Source: an uncultured Candidatus Cenarchaeum sp. (lineage in GTDB: Archaea > Thermoproteota > Nitrososphaeria > Nitrososphaerales > Nitrosopumilaceae). Taken from it: a stretch of 64,000 nt of DNA. Both the position numbers and the translations under genes were made by a program. Location: positions 1,534,161 through 1,598,160 of the forward strand of contig OY282369.1 in assembly GCA_958295735.1 (NCBI GenBank). The letters are read 5' to 3'. The notes under the pieces were generated by a model that was given only the letters and a program-made list of their open reading frames with translations, was not told the DNA's origin and did not search any database. Positions 32,144-52,259 of the stretch are shown piece by piece. Numbering within the stretch: the first letter of the stretch is position 1; each line of letters starts with the position of its first letter.

Positions 32144-33874
32144 TCAGGCGGACGCCGCTGCCGGAGCCGGCGCCCGCCCCGCCGCGGAGCCGGGCGGGCG
32201 CACCAGCCCGGATGCGGGGTCATCGAAGACGCACCAGTCGGGCCCGGCCCACGGGCCGGGGTCGAACATTTTCCAGTCGCGATTGCGGGCGATCTCGGTG
32301 AAGGCCCTGCCCGGGAACATGCCGTTCATGCGGGCGGTGCCCCCGATCGTGACCAGCTCGGAGAACGTCTTGCGCCCCTCCGGCGTGGAGATCTTGTGGT
32401 GCGCATTGCGCTGCGTCACTATGAGGTCGCGTATGGCGAGCTCGGCGGGGTTGTTGTGGGGCGGCATGCCGCGGAATCCCATGAACGTGAGCACGTGCGG
32501 CTCGGCGTTGGCGAGGTGCGTCTTCAGCTTGCCGTCGGGGTACGCCGACACGGCGTCGTGGAACTCCTTGGCCAGGTACGTCACGGTGAACGGCGCCAGC
32601 GTCTTGATGCCGTGTATCTTGTGGTAGTACCCCTGCATCCAGTCGTGCCTCGCCTCGTCCCCCGGGTCGCCGTCCACGGCGACGGCCTCGCCCTTGGCGA
32701 GCAGGTGCCTGCAGCATCTCTGCAGATGCTGGAACCACGCGCGGTACGCCGGCAGCCCGTCGGCCACCACCGCCCTGCGGGACAGCCAGCCGAAGTGCTC
32801 CCTCAGGACCGCCGCCCCCCGGGTGGGCGCGAAGTGCACCCACACGGCGTTGCCCACGACGGCCACCCAGACGTAGCCGGTCTTGCCCAGCACGCCGATC
32901 TTGAACCCGGTCTCGTCCATGTGCACGAACATGCTCTCGCGGAACGCCCACTTGATGTCCTCCAGCTGCTTCTTTGACGCGCCCGCCATGGCCCTCCTGG
33001 CCTTCGCCACGGCCGCCTCCGAGATGCGGAAGTAGAACGTGGACTCGATAAAGCCGGCGATCCTCGCGTCCGTGCAGCCCATCTCGAACAGCGCCATTAT
33101 GAGGCCGAGCGCCCTCGGGCCGCACGAGGTGCCCTTCGGAAACGGCGCCTGGGCCTCGTAGTACTTCTCGCACTTGCCGCACCAGCCCGTCTCCACCTCG
33201 ATCATCGCGGTGACCACGCGCCAGAACTGATCGAAGTCGTTGACCAGCTTTCGCCACCTGTCGAACTTCTCCAGGGGGCCGCAGCACACGGGGCACGTCA
33301 GGATCCCGCACTTCATGGTGAACTCGGGCTTGTTGCAGTGCGAGACGCCCTTGTGCCCTTGGGGCGGGCCCATCTTGCGCGGGGCGCCGCCGTCCGGAGC
33401 GGGCTTGCCGTCGGATCCGGCCCCGTCGCTCCCCTTGTAGCCCCGCTCCTTGCGCCAGGCGTTCCGCCGGGGGCCGTACGTGGTGAGGGACGACGAGGGC
33501 GCGTTCGGGCCGTCGCACACGGCAAGCCTGACCGCCTGCTCGGCGGCCTTGGCCTTCAGCCCGGAGTTCTCGGCTTCCAGCCCGGCGATCTTTTCCAACG
33601 CGGCCGCCAGTTCCTTGCGCAGCAGCGCCTGCTCCGTGGACTTGGCCTTCAGCATCGCGATCTCGGCCGCCCGCTCCGCGGCCTCGGCTTCCAGCCCGGC
33701 GATCTTTTCGAGCGAGGCCGCAAGTTCCTTGCGCAGCAGCGCCTGCTCCGTGGACTTGGCCTTCAGCATCGCGATCTCGGCCGCCCGCTCCGCGGCCTCG
33801 GCTTCCAGCCCGGCGATCTTTTCCAACGCGGCCGCCAGTTCCTTGCGCAGCAGCGCCACCCCGGATTCCGCCAT
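32144..33874 (-). CDS. IS66-family transposase
   Basis: 576 aa. N-terminal coiled coil (~residues 5-105) built from a 38-residue repeat (LLRKELAA, LEKIAGLEAEAAERAAEIAM) present twice plus a partial copy, 114 bp apart in DNA. Then a zinc-binding region (LTCPVCCGPLEKF, GWCGKCEKYYEA) and the DDE core: FVHMDETGFKIG, VVADGLPAYRAWF and NNPAELAIRDLIVTQRNAHH. All three acidic residues are present, so the enzyme looks intact. ATG 33874 matches the start of the remnant copy and follows TATA-like TGTATAATTG by ~25 nt. Confidence 0.93.
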   Translation of the reverse strand: MAESGVALLRKELAAALEKIAGLEAEAAERAAEIAMLKAKSTEQALLRKELAASLEKIAGLEAEAAERAAEIAMLKAKSTEQALLRKELAAALEKIAGLEAENSGLKAKAAEQAVRLAVCDGPNAPSSSLTTYGPRRNAWRKERGYKGSDGAGSDGKPAPDGGAPRKMGPPQGHKGVSHCNKPEFTMKCGILTCPVCCGPLEKFDRWRKLVNDFDQFWRVVTAMIEVETGWCGKCEKYYEAQAPFPKGTSCGPRALGLIMALFEMGCTDARIAGFIESTFYFRISEAAVAKARRAMAGASKKQLEDIKWAFRESMFVHMDETGFKIGVLGKTGYVWVAVVGNAVWVHFAPTRGAAVLREHFGWLSRRAVVADGLPAYRAWFQHLQRCCRHLLAKGEAVAVDGDPGDEARHDWMQGYYHKIHGIKTLAPFTVTYLAKEFHDAVSAYPDGKLKTHLANAEPHVLTFMGFRGMPPHNNPAELAIRDLIVTQRNAHHKISTPEGRKTFSELVTIGGTARMNGMFPGRAFTEIARNRDWKMFDPGPWAGPDWCVFDDPASGLVRPPGSAAGRAPAPAAASA

Positions 33875-34015
33875 GCCGGCAGGCCCAAACTCGCCACAAT
33901 TATACAAATCGACCCTTAGGCCAGCCTAAGCTTGCGCGGCGCGCGGGCCCGCCCGGGCGGCCAAGTCGCGGCGGGAGGGGGGGGGGAGGTAAGTGTGTAC
34001 CCGCCCCCCACCGCA

Positions 34016-43034: not shown

Positions 43035-43090
43035 CCGGGGCCCCGCGCGGCGGCGCGTTGCCGCCGTTTAGCCCGAACTAATTTTGCCTA

Positions 43091-43100
43091 GATATAAATA
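43091..43100 (+). promoter_or_regulatory. TATA box of the second ferredoxin
   Basis: GATATAAATA, ~27 nt before ATG 43123. It shows that the second ferredoxin has its own promoter and is not simply co-transcribed with the first. Confidence 0.7.
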
Positions 43101-43122
43101 CGAACCATCGGGTGGGGGGCGC

Positions 43123-43659
43123 ATGCCAATTGACGAAAAATTCGTCGAGAACTTGGAGGTAGCCGGCCAGACCAACCACTCTGACGGCGAGAACAAGCAC
43201 TTCATCTGGGGCGCCGGCAAGACCGACGGCGCCGCGTTCTCCAACGAGCAGGTAAAGGCCGCGTACGCGGAGCACGGGGAGGAGCAGGTGCCCCTGGGAA
43301 TCCACGGCACGACGGTGGCCGTGGACTGGGACGACTGCACCGCCCAGGGCTCGTGCATGAGCGTGTGCCCCGTGCAGACCTTCCAGTGGTACCGCACCGA
43401 AAAGGACGTCTCTGCCGACAAGTGCATGGGCGAGACCTTCGACGGGACCGGAAACACTGAGCAGGACGAGCGCCTGGACTACTCGGACAAGTCGCAGCCC
43501 ATAAGGGAGCACGACTGCACCCAGTGCATGGCGTGCCAGGAGGCCTGCCCGGAAAAGGCGATCCTCATAGAGCCCTCGTACCAAGAGCACCACGAAAAGG
43601 CCGACGGAACGTACGTTAAGATGAGTTCGGGCTCGGTAAACCCGCACGCGCACGACTAG
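43123..43659 (+). CDS. Zinc-type dicluster ferredoxin, paralogue 2
   Basis: 178 aa, tandem duplicate of the preceding gene. HSDGENKHFIWG, CTAQGSCMSVCPVQTFQWYR and CTQCMACQEACPEKAILIE give the same zinc, 3Fe-4S-like and 4Fe-4S pattern. The tail differs (VKMSSGSVNPHAHD) and codon GC is a little lower than in paralogue 1. Two promoters suggest different expression. Paralogues may serve different partners, for example the ferredoxin reductase-like protein at 62411. Confidence 0.9.
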   Translation: MPIDEKFVENLEVAGQTNHSDGENKHFIWGAGKTDGAAFSNEQVKAAYAEHGEEQVPLGIHGTTVAVDWDDCTAQGSCMSVCPVQTFQWYRTEKDVSADKCMGETFDGTGNTEQDERLDYSDKSQPIREHDCTQCMACQEACPEKAILIEPSYQEHHEKADGTYVKMSSGSVNPHAHD

Positions 43660-43725
43660 GCGCCGATCGCCTGTCCCTTTTTCAAGCAGCCCGCGGGGAC
43701 GGGGCGCGCGCCCCTGCCGCGCGGC

Positions 43726-44397
43726 CTATTCGGGCGGGCCCGCTATGCGGCCGCGCTGCAGGTCGGCGCGGGGCCGCGAGCCCTCCTGGCGCAGGAGCGG
43801 GAACGCCCCTGCCGATCCGCCCCCGCGCCCGGCGGGGGGCGCCCGGCGGCTATACGCCCGCTGGCGGAGGACCGAGTACACCGAGCGGCTCGCGTCGGAT
43901 GCCGCGCCCAGCGACAGGCATATCCCGTCGACGAGCGTGACGCTGCTCGCCTCCGTGAGCCGCCCGGCGGCCGCCGCGCCCAGCGTCCGGCGTATCTCCC
44001 TGATGATCGGGATGTCGTCCGGCTCCGCGGGCGGCCCGCGGCTCCCGGCGCGCGCCGTGCCTCCCTTCCGCGGCTTGTTCCCGGGGCCCGGCCCGCCGCC
44101 CCGGCGCCCGCCGGCCCCCTCCCCGCCCGCCGGGCCTCCCTTCCGCGGCTTGTTCCCGGGGCCCGGCCCGCCGCCCCGGCGCCCGCCGGCCCCCTCCCCG
44201 CCCGCCGGGCCTCCCTTCCGCGGCTTGTTCCCGGGGCCCTCGTAGCGCGACAGCCTCCTGGCCAGCGCATCGGCGAGCCTCTCCAGGCGCTCGATCTCGC
44301 GGGCGTCCTCGGCGCGCCTGGACTCGAACTCGCGGATCCTGCCGACGCACGCATCCAGGGCCTCCACCAGTTCCATCACGGAGGTGCTCCGGGCCAC
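43726..44397 (-). CDS. Protein with Gly/Lys repeat linker, unknown function
   Basis: 223 aa from GTG 44397 (TATA-like TTTTTTATACGC ~26 nt upstream; ATG 44376 also possible). Residues ~8-52 form an acidic/basic helix (GRIREFESRRAEDAREIERL). Residues ~53-115 are a 25-residue repeat, GPGNKPRKGGPAGGEGAGG plus RRGGGP, present 2.5 times. Residues ~120-175 form a folded-looking domain (DDIPIIREIRRTLGAAAAG, VTLVDGICLSLGAAS). The C-terminus is translated family A repeat. Basic linkers like this are common in nucleic-acid-binding proteins; function unknown. Confidence 0.65.
   Translation of the reverse strand: MARSTSVMELVEALDACVGRIREFESRRAEDAREIERLERLADALARRLSRYEGPGNKPRKGGPAGGEGAGGRRGGGPGPGNKPRKGGPAGGEGAGGRRGGGPGPGNKPRKGGTARAGSRGPPAEPDDIPIIREIRRTLGAAAAGRLTEASSVTLVDGICLSLGAASDASRSVYSVLRQRAYSRRAPPAGRGGGSAGAFPLLRQEGSRPRADLQRGRIAGPPE
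43788..43829 (-). repeat. REP-like repeat family A, copy 11, within a reading frame
   Basis: On the minus strand GGCGCGGGGGCGGATCGGCA, GGGGCGTTCCCGCTCCTGCG, CC. The only copy inside an apparent gene; it encodes the GGGSAGAFPLLRQE part of the tail at 43726. Confidence 0.65.
44059..44237 (-). repeat. In-frame 75-bp tandem repeat
   Basis: The same 75-bp unit starts at 44059, 44134 and 44209 (shared start GCCTCCCTTCCGCGGCTTGT), two full units and one partial, nearly identical in DNA. It encodes the 25-residue Gly/Lys linker repeat. Confidence 0.88.
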
Positions 44398-44453
44398 GCG
44401 GGGGGCCCCGCGCGCGCGTATAAAAAATTCGGGATCGCCCCCCGGCGCGCGGC

Positions 44454-47400
44454 CTAGAGGGCGCCGGCGTCGGCTATGAGGTAGCGCAACGCGCCCAGCA
44501 TCTCCGAGTCGCCAAGCAGGCCGTCGCCCCACCACGCGTACAGCCTCTTCACCCACTGCGGGACCGACGCGCCGGCCCCCTCCCCGCCGGACCCGGGCAG
44601 GAGGCCCGCCCCGGCCATGTCGCGCAGCGATGCGCGCACCTCGGCGTCCGAGACGTGCTCGCCGCGTAGCATGGCTACCTGCCGCACCCATTCCGGGACC
44701 GGGACGGGGGCGAGCTCGAACGAGGCCGAGCCCGCGCGCTCGCCGCCGCGCGACGCGTCCACGCGGTACTCGCCTGGCGCTGCCCCGGGCCGCAGGACGA
44801 CGACCGCCTCGAACCGGCCGGCCGCGTCCGGGACGGCCTCCAGCAGCACGGGCGGGCCCGCGGGGCCCGCGACCGATATGGCGACTGGAGGCGCGCCGCC
44901 GGGGGCGGCCGGCCCGCCGCCCGCGCGCCCGGACACGCGCACCTCTGCCGTCGCGCCGGGGGCCGGCGATGCCAGGCCCCCTGGCGCGTCCAGGCGCAGC
45001 GGGTACTCCGGCTGCCGCCCGGGCTGCCCGGGCTGCGCGGGCTGCCGCCCCCCGGCCGAGGCGCTCACCGCGCTGGGGTTGCCGCTGCCGTCGAGGAAGT
45101 CGTAGTATTTCGCGTCCACCCTGCCGCCGGCCGGCGAGACCAGCCTGGTGCCGTCCTCGCTGCATATGCGGGAGGGCATCTTGAAGGAGCCCTCGAAGAC
45201 CCCCGTGGCGGGGCCCGTCTCGACCAGCGCGAAGCCGGTGGATCCCAGGCCGCCGTGCGACACGCCGTCCGCGGTGGTGCACCCGCGGTACCTGTGCCCC
45301 TTTATGGTGACCTCCAGGAGGATCCCGCCGCCCGGCGCGCCCACCGCGTCCGTGGCCTCGGATGCCGCGTACGACTCCACCGTCCCGCCGTCCGTGTTCA
45401 GGTCGGGATCGCGGAGCGTCACGGTGACGGGCTGGCCGAACCGGTATGAGGGCGATCCGAGGCTGACCGCCCCCGAATGCGTGCCGGACGCGAGCCCCGC
45501 GGCGACGGGCCCCCGTTCCCCCGCCCCGCCCGCCGCGTCGGCGTACGATACGGTGATCTCGTCCGATCCCGCCCCCGCGCCGGCGGCGAACCTCACCTCG
45601 TCGCCGTGCGTGCGCAACGAGGCGACGAAGGCGGGATCGGCGGCGTCCCCGGGGCCCATGACCGCGCGCTCCACGGTCCCCGCGAACACCCCCGTGCTCC
45701 TGCCCGTCTCCTCCATCTCCACGCGGTACGCCGCGTTGCTGCCCCAGCTGCCCGCGCCGAACGAGGCCACGTCCAGCACTACGGGCATCGCGCCGCCCGC
45801 CGCGGTTCCCTCCCCGTCCCCGCCCAGCCTTACCACGATGAACGCCGCGCCCGATCCCGCCGCGTAGGCCGGGGGATCGGGGATGCGCGCGAGGCCCCTC
45901 CCGTCCCCGGGGATGCCGTCCAGCAGCACGACGGCCCCCGGATCGCCCGGGCTGCCGAACGCCACGCTGACCGAGGATGCCGGCAGGTCAGCCCCCGCCG
46001 ACCCGAGCGCGGCGCGCAGGTCGTAGTTCAGCCAGTTGGTGCCCGAGCCGGCGTCCGCCAGGACGGCGCGCAGGTCGGCGGCCGAATACCCCGCATCCAC
46101 CACCATGGCGTACGGGGCCGGGCCCGGGTCCGCGACCGTCAGCCTGCCGTCGGCCCCGGCGGAGTGGGCCGCCCGCGCCGCGGCCTCCCCGTCCCGGACA
46201 ATCTCGACGCCGGCGGCGCCGGCCAGCGTCAGCGGGGATCCGATCCGGACGACGGGCACGGACTTCACGGCCGGGTCCGAGGAGTCCAGCACGTCCCTCT
46301 TCGCCGCGTTGAGGTCCAGGTCCGCATCGCGCAACTCCACGCGGACCGGGGTGCCCGGGGGGACTGCCGCCGCCCCGCCCGCGATCGCCGGGGCGGCCGC
46401 CGCCCCGAGCGAGACGGAGGCGCCGGAGGGGCCGGTCACCGCGGACAGCGTCGACTCGCCGTAGCGGAACGCCGCCGCGTTCCCCCTCGGCGCGCCGGGC
46501 AGCACGTGGACGGTCGACGACTTTGCCCCGTCGTGGCTCTCGAATACCCCCGTATTGCGGCCCGTCTCGGCCAGCGTGACCAGATCCGAGTACCGCGCGG
46601 CGCCGGCGGAGAGCGACGCTGACGGCTGGTTCGCGTTCGGCTTGAAGCCCAGTATGCTGGGCCTGCCGGCCTCCCCGTCTAGCACCTCGAGCAGCCCCTC
46701 CCCGTCCTCGAACCCGAGCCGCCCGAGGTGCGGGGCGAGGTCGGGCGATCCCCGCCCGCCGAACGCCATGTAGAAGGCGGCCGGCCCGCCGGGCCCCGTC
46801 CCGAACGTCCAGCGGTCCTCGTCGGTCGGATCCAGGCCGAGCTGCGCGTCGGCCACGGAGACGAAGACCTCGGCGCCGGCGGGGTACCTCTCCCTGTCCA
46901 GCGCCAGCGCGGGCTCGGGCATCTCGCCGTACTCCAGCCTCGCCTCGCCCCCGCCCCCGCCGCCCCTCTCGTACCTTACCGCGGCATCGCCCCCCTTGAA
47001 CAGCTGCACGGCGGGCCAAGCGCCGGGATCCAGGCCTATCTGCCCGGGGGGGACTGCCGGGTTCTCGTTCATCGCGGCCGGGCGCCTCACCACGCTGTTC
47101 AGCGCGGCGCCCCACCCGCCGCCGGCCGGGCCCGAGCAGGCCGCGGGCCGGCCGGGCCCGTCCGTCCCGCCGCCCCCGCCCCGCGGCACGGCCACCGCGT
47201 CGGCCCCGCCGAACGACGCGCCGAGGGCCGATGCGGGGGTGGACGGGGAGCAGAAGCGCCCAAAGTCGGGGCCGCCCCCGCCGGCCGCCGCGAGTCCGTC
47301 CGCGTACAGCGCGGCGTCCGCGTCCGCAAAGTACGCGTACCACGCGCCGTCGGCCCCCTGCACCATCCGGAGCGGGGAGCCGCCCACCGTGACGTCCGGC

Positions 47401-47636
47401 TCCCCCACCGGCCCGCCGGTGTCGCGCAGGTCCGGATCCCTCACCACCACCTCCACGACCATCGCCCCCGCAAAGTGCCCCGCGGCCGCCCGGCCGTCGG
47501 GGCCCGCCGCGGACACGTACAGGTACGGCGATCCGCTGCCGCCCTGCTGGCCCGCGGCGGCGGGGGCCGCCAGCGCGGCCGCGGCGACCGCGGCCAGGAC
47601 GGCGGCCGCGTAAAGCGCCGCTCTCCCCGCCCGCAT
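44454..47636 (-). CDS. Large exported surface protein, S-layer-like modules
   Basis: 1060 aa. Signal peptide (ALYAAAVLAAVAAAALAAPA), then beta-sandwich modules marked by the repeated phrase ETG-x-x-TGVF at ~362, ~646 and ~810 and by VTLRDPDLNTDGG / VRDPDLRDTGG-type segments. The last ~90 residues carry two copies of the helical motif VPEWVRQVAMLRG and VPQWVKRLYAWWGDG, common at the C-termini of thaumarchaeal surface proteins. An S-layer or S-layer-associated role is inferred; no transmembrane anchor is seen. ATG 47636 follows TATA-like CATATTAG by ~25 nt. Confidence 0.8.
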   Translation of the reverse strand: MRAGRAALYAAAVLAAVAAAALAAPAAAGQQGGSGSPYLYVSAAGPDGRAAAGHFAGAMVVEVVVRDPDLRDTGGPVGEPDVTVGGSPLRMVQGADGAWYAYFADADAALYADGLAAAGGGGPDFGRFCSPSTPASALGASFGGADAVAVPRGGGGGTDGPGRPAACSGPAGGGWGAALNSVVRRPAAMNENPAVPPGQIGLDPGAWPAVQLFKGGDAAVRYERGGGGGGEARLEYGEMPEPALALDRERYPAGAEVFVSVADAQLGLDPTDEDRWTFGTGPGGPAAFYMAFGGRGSPDLAPHLGRLGFEDGEGLLEVLDGEAGRPSILGFKPNANQPSASLSAGAARYSDLVTLAETGRNTGVFESHDGAKSSTVHVLPGAPRGNAAAFRYGESTLSAVTGPSGASVSLGAAAAPAIAGGAAAVPPGTPVRVELRDADLDLNAAKRDVLDSSDPAVKSVPVVRIGSPLTLAGAAGVEIVRDGEAAARAAHSAGADGRLTVADPGPAPYAMVVDAGYSAADLRAVLADAGSGTNWLNYDLRAALGSAGADLPASSVSVAFGSPGDPGAVVLLDGIPGDGRGLARIPDPPAYAAGSGAAFIVVRLGGDGEGTAAGGAMPVVLDVASFGAGSWGSNAAYRVEMEETGRSTGVFAGTVERAVMGPGDAADPAFVASLRTHGDEVRFAAGAGAGSDEITVSYADAAGGAGERGPVAAGLASGTHSGAVSLGSPSYRFGQPVTVTLRDPDLNTDGGTVESYAASEATDAVGAPGGGILLEVTIKGHRYRGCTTADGVSHGGLGSTGFALVETGPATGVFEGSFKMPSRICSEDGTRLVSPAGGRVDAKYYDFLDGSGNPSAVSASAGGRQPAQPGQPGRQPEYPLRLDAPGGLASPAPGATAEVRVSGRAGGGPAAPGGAPPVAISVAGPAGPPVLLEAVPDAAGRFEAVVVLRPGAAPGEYRVDASRGGERAGSASFELAPVPVPEWVRQVAMLRGEHVSDAEVRASLRDMAGAGLLPGSGGEGAGASVPQWVKRLYAWWGDGLLGDSEMLGALRYLIADAGAL

Positions 47637-47664
47637 TCTACGCGTGCAGCGCGCCGCTCTAATA

Positions 47665-48149
47665 TGTGGTGTCTGTTGCGTGCGCCGCCGCCAAGAACGC
47701 GCGCCGCGGGCGGGCGGGGGGCAGAAACGGCAGGCGCCCGCAGCCCGCAGCCGCGCATCCAAAATTGCCGCATCGTCCGGCACGGAGCAGGCGCCGGTTG
47801 GAGTTCGCGGCCTGCGCGTCCCCGCCGATCGGCGCGGCAGGAGCATCCGTTGCCACGGAATGCGGGAATGGCGGGAGATGCCGACGGCGGCGGCGCGCCT
47901 CATGCGGCAGTTCGCATCGCGGCCGCTGGCGCGGATCGTCGTTCCCAAAGCGTCCAGGCATTGGGCCGCAGCCGCCGCAGTGGGTCTGGTTTTGGAATGC
48001 GGAAAGGCTTGGTGCACAAGCGCGAATGTGCCTAGGCTGGACAGGACAGAATGCGCTACGAACCTGCCGCTCGGGGCCAAGGGCCGGCGTGGTTCACGCG
48101 GCAAGCCGCGGCACACGGCTGAGCGGCCGGCGCCGGGACGCGCCGGCGC
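47665..48149. other. Intergenic stretch at the island border, no gene seen
   Basis: About 480 bp in which GC falls gradually towards the low-GC HD gene. No convincing ORF, RNA or repeat. The border with the HD gene has no visible direct repeat or attachment site. Confidence 0.45.
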
Positions 48150-49460
48150 CTAGTCTTGGTACGAGATGATCCTCACTGGTACTCGCAGCCTCTCGGCGAT
48201 CTTGTCTGCTATTTTTCTCCTCGTGCCGGAGTCTCCGGGCCCGTACACCAGATACCTGATCACCAAGGACTTCGCAGTGATCGGGGAATACTGGGACAGG
48301 CTCATCACATCCTCTTTTCTTATGACCTGGATAGAATCGCCGCCGTACAGCTTTATGCCGATCTCGGCCTTTAAGAATATCACTTGATGCGCTTCCAAGC
48401 CGAGCTCGCCTGCGACCTCGCGGGCCATGCTGTCAAAGTCATCCTGCTCCATTTTCACGAGTTTCCTGTCGACGCCCGCATTCCTCATGAGTTCCATTGA
48501 CGTAAAGTCGCAGGCACGCTTCAGTAGCCGCCGGTGCCTGACGTCTTGTAGGATCTTCTTGCTCATGCTGTCTGAATTGTGGCGCATGATCATCTCATAG
48601 ATCGAACTGTCGTCCAAACTCTTGTAGAATTTCAGAAATTCACTGTCGTCGCCGTCCTGTCCGCGCTTCAAGAAGTTCTCGTCTATGACTCCCTCGTCAA
48701 GCGCCGCGTTGAGCGCCTGTAGGAACATCTTGTCCGCCACCAATCTGGCGTGGTGGTGGTATACCTGCACATGCAGGAGGTGCCTCCCGAGGCGGTAGCC
48801 CTCCACCGCGTCCTTGCCCCTGATGTCGACGCAGACGGTATCGTCCTCCGGGTTTTTTCGTATGGTGTGCAGTATGCGGTCCAGGTCGAATCTACCATAG
48901 GATACTCCAATGTGGTGAGAGTCGCGCAACATGTAGTCGAGCTTGTCCGCATCTAGGCTGCCGGACACAATGCTGGAAGCGAGAGCGTCTTCCTCGGGCG
49001 CGGACTTGCCCAAGATCTCTGCTACTCGATGCCTCCTCTCCCCCAGCACGCGCGCTACATCTTCGTCTTCCTCTATCATCACGCGCGATATGGCCTCGTG
49101 CGAGCTATCGATGCCGTGATTGCGCTTGTCTACCACTCCTTCGAAGAGGTGGGAAAACGGTCCGTGTCCTATGTCGTGCAGCAGCGCAGCCAGCCGCACT
49201 AACTCCTTTGCCTCTTTGTCCATGTTCAACTCGTCGCACATGCGACTTGCCACATCCATGCACCCAAGCGAGTGTTCGAAGCGCGTGTGGACGGCGCTCG
49301 GGTATGCGATGAATGTGTGGGCCAGCTGCTTTATTCTGTGCAGCCGCCGGAACGCTGGCGTGTCGATCAGCCGTGTTTCAATTTCAGACAGGCCGATGAA
49401 CCCGTACAACGGATCGCGTATGGCCTTGTGCCGAAAGTGGCGCTGGCCGTCACTTGTCAA
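48150..49460 (-). CDS. HD-domain dNTP triphosphohydrolase-like protein (YwfO/SAMHD1-type)
   Basis: 436 aa. The metal site is complete: HTRFEHSLG (first His), AALLHDIGHGPFSHLFE (HD plus His) and SLDADKLDYMLRDS (last Asp). The start DPLYGFIGLSEIETRLIDTP and a C-terminal ~150-residue region match the YwfO-like branch related to SAMHD1 and other dNTPases. It may hydrolyse dNTPs in the cytoplasm. Its GC and codon use are well below the neighbours, suggesting acquisition. TTG 49460 overlaps the YwgA-like gene by 11 bp, so the two form one transcript. Confidence 0.88.
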   Translation of the reverse strand: MTSDGQRHFRHKAIRDPLYGFIGLSEIETRLIDTPAFRRLHRIKQLAHTFIAYPSAVHTRFEHSLGCMDVASRMCDELNMDKEAKELVRLAALLHDIGHGPFSHLFEGVVDKRNHGIDSSHEAISRVMIEEDEDVARVLGERRHRVAEILGKSAPEEDALASSIVSGSLDADKLDYMLRDSHHIGVSYGRFDLDRILHTIRKNPEDDTVCVDIRGKDAVEGYRLGRHLLHVQVYHHHARLVADKMFLQALNAALDEGVIDENFLKRGQDGDDSEFLKFYKSLDDSSIYEMIMRHNSDSMSKKILQDVRHRRLLKRACDFTSMELMRNAGVDRKLVKMEQDDFDSMAREVAGELGLEAHQVIFLKAEIGIKLYGGDSIQVIRKEDVMSLSQYSPITAKSLVIRYLVYGPGDSGTRRKIADKIAERLRVPVRIISYQD

Positions 49461-49989
49461 GGCGCAGTTTTTTGAGCAGGTCTATGCCGGTCCTAGCATC
49501 CTTGTCGGATATGCGCCAGTTCAGGTCCTTGCCGCCGCTCCTTACGTTGTCTACCGTGTATTCGCCCCCGCCTTGTTTGGCCACTATGTAGTGGCATTTT
49601 GCGGCATACGAGAGCGGCGCCGGCTTTAGCTCGCAGAACGCCTTGCATGTTCTCACCGTCTCATCAATCTGTTTGTTCTCTTCTGGAAACTCACTTGACG
49701 CTGCCTCAGCGTACTTACTGCCTTCTTCCGTCATCTCGTACGCGTAGCCCTCGTGGAATCTTGGATGCGCGATCTCGTTTACGAATGCGAACGCGGACAG
49801 GTCGTACAGGGCGGATGCCACCACCCTGCTGAACGGCCCGTAATAGTGGTGCGTGTAATGTGGGGAGAACTCTTTTATGTTGATGGTGTGAAAGTACACC
49901 AGTTTTTGTACAGTCACCCTGCCGTTCAAGGTGCCCCCGCAACTGCTGATGGTGAGGAGTATAGCATCGTGGGAGTCAAAACCCAGCAT
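49450..49989 (-). CDS. YwgA-like protein
   Basis: About 179 aa. ILLTISSCGGTLNGRVTVQK, LVYFHTINIKEFSPHYTHHY and YGPFSRVVASALYDLSAF give the winged-helix-like pattern of the YwgA family (unknown function), often beside YwfO-type HD genes in bacteria. ATG 49989 is preferred: TATA-like TTTAAATT lies ~25 nt upstream, inside the first codons of the longer frame (ATG 50028). Low GC like its partner. A regulator or partner of the HD enzyme is inferred. Confidence 0.75.
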   Translation of the reverse strand: MLGFDSHDAILLTISSCGGTLNGRVTVQKLVYFHTINIKEFSPHYTHHYYGPFSRVVASALYDLSAFAFVNEIAHPRFHEGYAYEMTEEGSKYAEAASSEFPEENKQIDETVRTCKAFCELKPAPLSYAAKCHYIVAKQGGGEYTVDNVRSGGKDLNWRISDKDARTGIDLLKKLRLDK

Positions 49990-50166
49990 TTCAGCGATAG
50001 AGATATGTTCCAATTTAAACCATTGCATTCCACCAGCGGTACACACTTACCTTCCCCCCGCTGCGCCTTGTGCCGCCCTAGCGGGCCTGCACGCCGCGTA
50101 GTCTTAGCTTGGCCTAAGTAACCCTAGGTTGATTGGTGCTAGTACGGCGGATTTGCTCCTGCCGGC

Positions 50167-51057
50167 ATGGCGGAATCGGAGACGGCGCCGCTGTGTAAAG
50201 AACTGGTGGCCGCGTTCGAAAAGATCGCGGCGCTGGAAGCCGGGACCGCGGAGCGGGATTCCGGGACCGCGTGGCTGGAAGCCAAGATCGCGGCGCTGGA
50301 AGCCAAGCTTGCCGTGTGCGGCGGCCCGAACGCACCCTCGTTGACCCTCTCCACGTACAACCCACGGCGGAATGCCTAGTGCAAGCAGGGGGGCTACCTG
50401 GGAGCGACAGGGCCGGATCTGACGGCGAGCCCGCGCCCCCGGGCAGGGCAACGCCTCGCGCAAGATGGGCCCGCTCGCAGGGCACAAGGGTTGCTGTGGG
50501 CGCTGACGCGGCTGGCCGGCAGTCCCCGCCGTGCGCATCATCAATGAGGCCGCGCGCCGCGTTGCTGTGGGCGCTGACGCGGCTGGCCGGCAGTCCGCTC
50601 GAGATATGGTCGGTGGCGGCGCTTGCGGCGGAGTTGCTGTGGGCGCTGACGCGGCTGGCCGGCGGTCAGGCCGCGCAAGATGGGCCCGCTCGCAGGGCAC
50701 AAGGTCGTCTCGCACCGCAACAAGCTCTAGTTCACCAGGGCGTGCGGGATCCTGGCGTGCCACGGATGCTACGGCCCGCTGGAGAAGATCACTAGCTGGC
50801 AAAAACTGGTCAACGACTTCGATCGGAACTGGCGCGTGGTCGACGCGATGATCGAGGTGGAAAAGGACTGGTGCTACAAGTGCGATGAGTTCTCCGAGGC
50901 CCGGGCGCCGTTTCCTAAGAGCACATCGTTCGACCCCAAGTCGATCTGTCTCATCATTGAGCTCTTCTTGCTGGGCGGCACGGACGCGAGGATCGCGCGC
51001 TTTTTCGAGGCCATGTACCACTTCTGCGTTTCGGAGGCGGCCATAGCAACCTGGAGG
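50167..51057 (+). pseudogene. Decayed IS66-family transposase
   Basis: Starts like the intact transposase (MAESETAPLCKELVAAFEKI) but has a TAG after ~70 codons, a frame-disrupting internal insertion (50490-50704) and a truncated end. The recognisable parts are KLAVCGGPNAPSLTLSTYNP early and KLVNDFDRNWRVVDAMIEVE, WCYKCDEFSEARAPFPKSTS, GGTDARIARFFEAMYHFCVS later. The catalytic DDE region is absent. Only one coiled-coil unit is present against two to three in the intact gene. Confidence 0.88.
50458..50704 (+). repeat. Tandem repeat insertion within the transposase remnant
   Basis: A ~36-bp block GTTGCTGTGGGCGCTGACGC / GGCTGGCCGGC occurs at 50490, 50561 and 50633 (71-72 bp apart). The array is bracketed by a 32-bp direct repeat containing GCAAGATGGGCCCGCTCGCA at 50458-50489 and ~50673-50704. 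The bracket matches transposase sequence; the array does not. Confidence 0.8.
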
Positions 51058-51173
51058 GAGCGCGGCGCGGCCGGCAGGCCGCGGGCGCGCCGCCCCGATC
51101 CCGCAGCGGCGCCGCGCGCCCGCCCCCGAGGGGCGGCCGAACGAATTTTAACGCGGCGCCTCATCCTCCCCCC

Positions 51174-51257
51174 GCAGAGGTCGCCTAGCCTGGTAGGGCG
51201 CGGGCCTTGAGAGCCTGTGCGAGAGATCGCGCGGGGGTTCGAATCCCCCCCTCTGCG
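51174..51257 (+). tRNA. tRNA-Ser (anticodon TGA)
   Basis: Acceptor GCAGAGG/CCTCTGC, anticodon stem CGGGC/GCCTG with loop CTTGAGA (anticodon TGA), a long variable arm (TGCGAGAGATCGCG) as expected for serine, T arm GGGGG-TTCGAAT-CCCCC, discriminator G. CCA not encoded. TATA-like GAATTTTAACG ~25-30 nt upstream. Confidence 0.93.
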
Positions 51258-51293
51258 CTCGCGCGGCCGGCGCCGAAACCGGCGCCGGCCGCG

Positions 51294-52259
51294 CTATCTG
51301 GATGCGCCCAGCCGCCCGAGCTCGGCCAGCATGGCCGTGAGCTGTATCTCGGGGCTGGACCCCGCCAGGATCCTGTAGTCGTACTTGGCCATGGCCTCCA
51401 GAACCTCCCCCATGTTGGGCGGCGCCGCCCTGTACACGGCCCCGCAGGCGTACTTTAGGAAGTCCGACTCGGACATGCCGTACACCTTTACGAGCTCCAC
51501 CATGCCCTCCCTGGCCTTGGCCAGGTTCCCGCCCATGGCCGCCTTGACCACTCCTTCCACGCTGTCGGCGCGCGCCAGGCCGGCCGCCGCCCTGATGTTG
51601 TCGGCCGTCACCTTGCCGGAACCGGTGGCCGCCGCCGCCTGCAGTATGTTGATGGCGTGCCTCAGGTCGCCCTCGGCCTGGTCGTAGATCTCCTCCAGGC
51701 TCTTCCTGTCCGCGGCCACCTTCTCGGCCTTGGCCAGCCGCCCCAGGTGGGCGACGAGATCCCCCTTTGGTATGGCGGTGAACTTGAACACGGCGCACCT
51801 GCTCTGGATGGGATCTATTATCTTGGATATGTTGTTGGCCACCAGTATGAACCTGCACACCCTGGCGGCGTCCTCTATGGTGCGGCGCAGGGCCGTCTGG
51901 GCGTCCGCGGTCATCTCGTCCGCCTCGTCGAGTATGATTATCTTGAACGGCACGTCCGCGAACGCCGCGTAGTTGGAGAAGCGCTTGACCTTGTCGCGCA
52001 CCATGCCTATGCCGCGCTCGTCAGAGGCGTTGAGCTCCAGCAGGTGGTCCCTCATGTGGTCCCCGAGCACCTGCCGCGCTATGCACAGCGCGGTGGTGGT
52101 CTTGCCCACCCCCGCCGACCCGGAGAACATCAGGTGCGGCATCTCGGCCGGCCTCTCCAGCAGTGCCCGTATGCTACCTATCGCCTCTGCCTGCCCCACC
52201 ACCTCGGACAGTTTCGCGGGCCTGTGCTTTTCCACCCACATGACGCCGCCTCCGGCCAT
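51294..52259 (-). CDS. rfcS: Replication factor C small subunit
   Basis: 321 aa clamp-loader ATPase that loads PCNA. WVEKHRPAKLSEVVGQ, FSGSAGVGKTTTALC (Walker A), LDEADEMTADAQTALRRTIE (Walker B/DEAD) and SRCAVFKF (Arg-finger Ser-Arg-Cys motif) are all present, followed by the C-terminal collar domain. ATG 52259 is ~25 nt after TATA-like TTTATTTAG. It converges on tRNA-Ser with a 36-bp gap. Confidence 0.96.
   Translation of the reverse strand: MAGGGVMWVEKHRPAKLSEVVGQAEAIGSIRALLERPAEMPHLMFSGSAGVGKTTTALCIARQVLGDHMRDHLLELNASDERGIGMVRDKVKRFSNYAAFADVPFKIIILDEADEMTADAQTALRRTIEDAARVCRFILVANNISKIIDPIQSRCAVFKFTAIPKGDLVAHLGRLAKAEKVAADRKSLEEIYDQAEGDLRHAINILQAAAATGSGKVTADNIRAAAGLARADSVEGVVKAAMGGNLAKAREGMVELVKVYGMSESDFLKYACGAVYRAAPPNMGEVLEAMAKYDYRILAGSSPEIQLTAMLAELGRLGASR

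What the first reader, a model, noticed from the sequence alone, without database searches (positions are those of the whole stretch)
48150..50046. Low-GC island with an HD dNTPase-like gene coupled to a YwgA-like gene
Seen: two genes overlapping by 11 bp, with GC content and codon choice far below the surrounding ~70% GC DNA, one promoter, and an IS66-like remnant at the upstream edge. The HD protein has all metal ligands of the YwfO/SAMHD1 group. Known: SAMHD1 and bacterial dGTPases restrict viruses by depleting dNTPs; ywfO and ywgA are neighbours in Bacillus. Inferred: a horizontally acquired two-gene module, possibly antiviral or nucleotide-pool control, with YwgA as sensor, inhibitor or partner. 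I know of no characterised archaeal system of this type.
Basis: partly seen in the sequence, partly recalled or inferred. Interest (0 to 1): 0.7.

Follow-up and report, generated by a model that had tools for sequence, protein, structure and literature searches.

The report
dNTP-destroying enzyme with antitoxin-like partner
In a marine archaeon, a horizontally acquired two-gene module pairs a SAMHD1-type enzyme, predicted to destroy the building blocks of DNA, with a protein folded like a known antitoxin domain; the same pair recurs in other archaea, bacteria and virus-like contigs, so it is probably a mobile, self-restrained growth-arrest or antiviral device.

Summary
Two minus-strand genes, YW (49450-49989, 179 aa) and HD (48150-49460, 436 aa), overlap by 11 bp behind one TATA-like box, at 55% GC in a genome sampled at 70%. 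HD has the SAMHD1 fold and every metal and catalytic residue. YW is homologous to Bacillus YwgA; its high-confidence model significantly matches only one solved structure, the C-terminal domain of the antitoxin DarG, and its family grades into the Panacea antitoxin domain. The pair is an insertion: its flanks (clamp-loader gene, tRNA-Ser, a ~180-aa gene) are contiguous in four relatives. Eight other Nitrosopumilaceae of 250 carry the pair or its remains. It also occurs in other archaea, several bacterial phyla and 7 distinct virus-like contigs, in both gene orders. HD is broken beside an intact YW in five places; one genome has HD without YW. Most likely YW restrains a toxic dNTPase, toxin-antitoxin style, with release on infection or stress; this is inferred, not shown. 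Main rival: nucleotide-pool control, as the stable Bacillales ywfO-ywgA pair suggests.

The parts
49450..49989 (-). YW gene: 179-aa YwgA-like protein with DarG C-terminal-domain fold (the ORF is open to a GTG at 50046; the ATG at 49989 is preferred from family starts and the TATA box)
48150..49460 (-). HD gene: 436-aa SAMHD1/EF1143-type HD phosphohydrolase, all metal and catalytic residues present
49450..49460 (-). 11-base overlap of the YW stop and the HD TTG start, suggesting translational coupling; overlaps of 13-17 bases in several relatives
50012..50019 (-). TATA-like box TTTAAATT at -30 to -23 from the YW ATG
50167..51069 (+). decayed IS66-family transposase remnant at the upstream edge (boundaries approximate)
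43660..51173 (.). interval that separates two genes contiguous (with the tRNA) in four relatives: the inserted segment, at most; it also holds a large secreted-protein gene
51174..51258 (+). tRNA-Ser(TGA), conserved flank
51294..52259 (-). replication factor C small-subunit gene, conserved flank
43084..43659 (+). conserved ~180-aa flanking gene on the other side of the insertion

Best explanation
The pair is a mobile, toxin-antitoxin-like module. YW (DarG C-terminal-domain / Panacea-like fold) is made first and binds the SAMHD1-type HD enzyme translated from the overlapping gene, keeping it inactive. When the balance is upset, for example by virus infection or loss of YW, the freed HD enzyme hydrolyses dNTPs, starving replication and arresting cell and virus together. 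Shown: operon structure, folds, catalytic residues, insertion, recurrent pairing, occurrence on virus-like contigs. Inferred: dNTP as substrate, direct inhibition by YW, toxicity, virus-triggered release.
For: HD matches SAMHD1 over the whole chain and keeps H63, H95, D96, D172 (metal) and H99, H121 (catalytic). YW has the fold of the DarG C-terminal domain, which blocks DarT directly, and aligns with Panacea antitoxins; one YW beside an HD passes Pfam's Panacea cut-off. The order antitoxin-then-toxin with overlap is conserved in the archaeal clade. Pair recurs in distant hosts and in 7 distinct viral contigs, one beside an integrase. Some archaeal YW-like genes pair with PIN/DUF3368 proteins instead. 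HD is broken beside intact YW in five places. Patchy, inserted, low GC. In Clover a dGTPase toxic on its own is restrained by its partner (PMC12265719).
Against: G048 has an intact accessory HD and no YW; many Bacillota have the HD without YwgA, so HD is not always lethal alone. In Bacillales the pair lies among ordinary chromosomal-type genes. Some HD breaks may be assembly errors (L111 above all). No complex could be modelled, and no activity, toxicity or defence was tested. Defence-gene neighbours are clear only in a few loci.
Confidence: 0.5

Rival explanations
1. Nucleotide-pool homeostasis: YW is an allosteric or oligomerisation partner that activates or tunes a dNTPase used in normal growth or quiescence, as the ywfO-ywgA pair of Bacillales may be; transfer simply spread a useful metabolic pair.
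For: Stable-looking HD-YW pair among ordinary genes in Bacillales; HD without YW in G048 and many Bacillota; per PMC12186491, bacterial dNTPases such as EF1143 are themselves activated by dNTPs.
Against: The archaeon already has a housekeeping HD without a partner; the paired HD is patchy, inserted and mobile-looking; the partner's only significant structural match is an antitoxin domain.
Confidence: 0.27
2. The HD enzyme is coupled to YW but acts on another substrate (for example a modified or signalling nucleotide), so the module is toxin-antitoxin-like or regulatory without general dNTP depletion.
For: HD-superfamily enzymes vary in substrate; substrate was not tested. The Clover effector is strict for dGTP, so specificity can be narrow.
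Against: All SAMHD1 metal and catalytic residues and the Q-L-R pocket residues are conserved and the fold match is to dNTPases.
Confidence: 0.12
3. YW is mainly a winged-helix transcription regulator of its own operon, not an inhibitor of the enzyme.
For: Below the DarG hits, the fold search lists weak winged-helix regulators (MarR, PadR); in archaea YW comes first in the operon.
Against: Those matches are all above E 0.05 and only the DarG domain matches along the whole chain. Many bacterial and viral relatives encode YW after HD.
Confidence: 0.08

Closest known systems
Bacillus ywfO-ywgA neighbouring genes (Bacillales HD protein + YwgA)
   Same: Both proteins homologous and adjacent on one strand
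   Different: Opposite gene order; apparently stable chromosomal-type context; YwgA only ~20-24% identical to YW; no function established for the pair
SAMHD1 / EF1143-type dNTP triphosphohydrolases
   Same: Whole-chain fold, metal ligands, catalytic histidines
   Different: No SAM domain; genetically coupled to YW; activity and allosteric activation untested
DarTG (DarG C-terminal domain)
   Same: YW fold and sequence profile match the DarT-blocking C-terminal domain of DarG
   Different: No macrodomain or NADAR domain on YW; partner is an HD dNTPase, not a DarT ADP-ribosyltransferase
Panacea (DUF4065/PF13274) antitoxin-toxin pairs
   Same: Profile kinship, QK-Y/GP-S motifs, small antitoxin-like gene overlapping a partner
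   Different: The window YW itself does not pass the Pfam model; no HD dNTPase toxin is named in the main text of the Panacea paper
Clover (CloA dGTPase + CloB)
   Same: Two-gene system, HD dNTPase effector restrained by its partner (PMC12265719)
   Different: CloB is a nucleotidyltransferase making an inhibitory nucleotide; YW has no such domain. L263 shows an HD + nucleotidyltransferase arrangement separately

Membership tests
SAMHD1/EF1143-type HD dNTPase | Fold and sequence similarity over the catalytic core | tested here: met
   Profile to PDB SAMHD1 and relatives; Foldseek TM 0.78 to 9mr6
SAMHD1/EF1143-type HD dNTPase | Metal ligands H167, H206, D207, D311 and catalytic H210, H233 (SAMHD1 numbering) | tested here: met
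   H63, H95, D96, D172, H99, H121 present
SAMHD1/EF1143-type HD dNTPase | dNTP triphosphohydrolase activity | not testable with these tools
   needs purified protein
DarTG | DarG with macrodomain or NADAR plus C-terminal domain | tested here: not met
   YW is only the C-terminal-domain part; 179 aa, match to DarG 188-311/338
DarTG | DarT partner | tested here: not met
   partner is an HD protein
Panacea antitoxin domain (PF13274) | Pfam match over cut-off | tested here: not met
   window YW: no Pfam match; but a YW beside HD in G290 passes and profiles align
Type II toxin-antitoxin system | Small gene next to and overlapping its partner, co-transcribed | tested here: met
   overlap, single upstream TATA-like box, recurrent pairing
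Type II toxin-antitoxin system | Toxin lost or broken more readily than antitoxin | tested here: inconclusive
   five broken HDs beside intact YW, but one intact HD without YW and many Bacillota HDs without YwgA
Type II toxin-antitoxin system | HD toxic alone; neutralised by direct binding of YW | not testable with these tools
   needs expression and binding experiments
Clover | CloB nucleotidyltransferase partner | tested here: not met
   YW has no nucleotidyltransferase match
YwfO-YwgA pair | Homologues of both proteins adjacent on one strand | tested here: met
   Priestia and four other Bacillales

The most novel reading that the evidence does not exclude
A previously undescribed, widespread class of toxin-antitoxin or abortive-infection module in archaea, bacteria and proviruses, in which a SAMHD1-type dNTPase is the toxin and a DarG-C-terminal/Panacea-superfamily protein is its directly binding antitoxin; it would explain what YwgA does and show SAMHD1-type enzymes as defence effectors in archaea.
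Probability: 0.4. Interest if true: 0.78.

Novelty: new variant of a known kind. Interest (0 to 1): 0.62.

Why it matters
SAMHD1 restricts HIV by draining dNTPs, and bacteria use dGTPases against phages (dGTPase defence, Clover). A mobile SAMHD1-type enzyme with an antitoxin-fold partner, found in archaea, bacteria and virus-like contigs, would link three fields: innate-immunity dNTPases, the Panacea/DarG antitoxin superfamily, and the unexplained Bacillus genes ywfO and ywgA. It turns a vague pairing into testable claims: the enzyme arrests growth, the partner binds and restrains it, and the pair blocks viruses. If the rival is right, it still identifies YwgA as a likely regulator of a dNTPase.

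Tried and rejected
Plasmid and phage records searched with YW: no match. Viral contigs searched with the window YW alone: nothing; the pairs appeared only with the HD alignment. A PDB match of YW to HitA (0.005) was dropped as chance once profile and fold pointed to DarG. An early alignment (A1) wrongly included an out-of-frame ORF from G048 as a YW; re-checking showed G048 has none, so the tree label for L057 is wrong and G048 counts as a counterexample. An alignment meant to co-fold YW and HD of L109 as one chain misaligned and was abandoned. Integration at the tRNA was considered: the insertion lies on the 5' side of tRNA-Ser, not at the usual 3' integration site, and no convincing flanking direct repeat was found, so an integrase origin is not claimed. 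Adjacency to the RFC small-subunit gene in both the window and G015/G032 looked like shared synteny, but orientation differs and the other neighbours do not match; treated as coincidence or two insertions near the same gene.

Full report
What is there. The minus strand of 48150-49989 carries two genes. YW (49450-49989, 179 aa) comes first and HD (48150-49460, 436 aa) follows, sharing 11 bases. A TATA-like TTTAAATT sits 23-30 bases before the YW ATG, the position expected for a leaderless archaeal transcript, and similar AT-rich boxes precede YW in many relatives. GC is 55% against a genome sample of 70.3 +/- 5.4%; 1.8% of sampled windows are as low, so the genome has other such islands. A decayed IS66-family transposase lies at the upstream edge, one of 33 matching places in the genome.

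Where it sits. The genome is a 3.17-Mb, one-contig member of a family that fits Nitrosopumilaceae; its only same-genus relative held (G001, 2,045,086 bases) matches, from memory, the size of Cenarchaeum symbiosum A. In G001, G003, G045 and G008 the clamp-loader small-subunit gene, a tRNA-Ser(TGA) and a ~180-aa gene are contiguous; in the window 7.5 kb separates the tRNA from that gene, and the pair is in it. The pair is therefore most simply an insertion on this lineage, not an ancestral locus.

HD. Pfam gives HD and HD-associated domains. A profile search of the PDB finds Aquifex O67745 (2hek), fungal SAMHD1 (9mr6), Bacteroides 2q14, human SAMHD1 and E. faecalis 2o6i (EF1143; species and names of 2q14 and 2o6i from memory). 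An AlphaFold2 model (pLDDT 91) matches SAMHD1 along the whole chain (E 3.8e-23, TM 0.78). The metal ligands and catalytic residues known for SAMHD1 (PMC7045340) and the Q-L-R pocket residues (roles from memory) are all present, in this HD and in the other accessory or partnered HDs aligned with it. The genome also has a housekeeping HD, 40% identical; 118 of 119 good-quality family genomes have an HD homologue. In the tree the window HD lies in a supported clade of archaeal YW-then-HD proteins (97*), sister to bacterial HD-then-YW proteins (96*) and apart from the archaeal clade that holds the housekeeping HDs (99*) (a quick tree; the L057 label there is wrong, see below).

YW. No Pfam family matches. 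DarG models of NCBIfam and PADLOC match at 6.5e-7 and 2.7e-8, on DarG's C-terminal part. The YW profile finds 7yk3_B, the DarG C-terminal domain in the M. tuberculosis DarTG complex (6.4e-5). The model (pLDDT 95) matches that domain at 9e-6 with probability 1.00, and nothing else in the PDB reaches 1e-3. DarG's C-terminal domain occludes the DarT active site (PMC11481870). YW is also homologous to the protein next to the YwfO-like HD in Priestia (5e-10). Archaeal Panacea proteins align with the YW profile at 96.6-98.4% probability, a reversed control at 0.2%, and one YW beside an HD (G290) passes Pfam's Panacea cut-off. Panacea is a promiscuous antitoxin domain (PMC8832971). Some archaeal YW-like genes sit beside PIN/DUF3368 proteins.

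How general the pairing is. Among 250 family genomes, the pair or its remains occur in nine including this one, at different loci. Among the 80 best HD loci from a collection of 84,980 species genomes, YW is adjacent on the same strand in 8, plus L111 whose HD is frameshifted, and occurs nowhere else in those stretches: Nitrososphaeria, an uncultured archaeon, Zipacnadia, Coatesbacteria and Bacillales. Among 30 HD loci on viral contigs, 8 (7 distinct) have it, one next to a phage integrase; such contigs can include host flanks, so this supports rather than proves viral carriage. Both gene orders occur. In L109 the next gene matches PD-T4-4_A/AriA defence models; the other neighbourhoods are mixed.

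Loss pattern. HD is truncated, stopped or frameshifted while YW is intact in G013 (two loci), G198 (second locus), G290 and L111. YW stands alone in several genomes; G001 has eight or more, seven in tandem. Against this, G048 keeps an intact accessory HD with a peroxiredoxin-like gene (by eye) where YW would be and no YW found in the genome, and many Bacillota have the HD without YwgA. The pattern leans towards an antitoxin but is not decisive.

How it most likely works. YW is synthesised first and holds the HD enzyme inactive; infection or stress frees the enzyme, which destroys dNTPs and halts replication. The closest worked example of this logic is Clover, where a dGTPase that is toxic alone is restrained by its partner, there through a nucleotide signal (PMC12265719). 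Here the partner has an antitoxin-domain fold, so direct binding is the more likely route. Substrate, inhibition and trigger are all inferred. The main alternative is ordinary nucleotide-pool control.

Novelty. Searches of the open literature found no description of this pair, and 'HD domain' does not occur in the main texts of the Panacea and NetFlax papers; most subscription papers and their supplements were out of reach. I rate it a new variant of a known kind (self-restrained nucleotide-depleting, toxin-antitoxin-like modules).

Noticed in passing
L065:7081-12335 (G001:C1, about 1992-1997 kb): Seven YW-family genes in tandem without any HD partner in the same-genus relative, plus single copies elsewhere, all lower in GC than the genome; looks like an array of orphan antitoxin-like genes.
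   Followed up: partly
L263:4842-6935 (viral contig): An HD gene followed directly by a nucleotidyltransferase (PF01909; PADLOC candidate PDC-M70A 8.8e-55): a Clover-like arrangement.
   Followed up: partly
L258:4569-6644, L259:4615-6575, L260:4628-6593: SAMHD1-like HD genes on viral contigs preceded by a ~120-aa gene of no known family: possibly a third kind of partner.
   Followed up: no
L090:1390-2593, L098:1396-2587, L101:673-1761: YwgA/Panacea-like genes followed by PIN/DUF3368-type proteins in other Thermoproteota: apparent toxin-antitoxin pairs.
   Followed up: partly
L054:11486-15150, L062:5931-9717, L106:7976-10805: Rad50-like (and Mre11-like) genes are recurrent neighbours of the pair in three archaeal loci; whether these are the housekeeping copies was not checked.
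   Followed up: no
window 32144-33907 and 33 places in G000: The genome carries many near-identical copies of an IS66-family transposase, none found in the five relatives searched.
   Followed up: partly
window 44454-47638, minus strand: A large, 77% GC secreted-type protein gene lies in the same interval that is absent from the corresponding site in four relatives.
   Followed up: no
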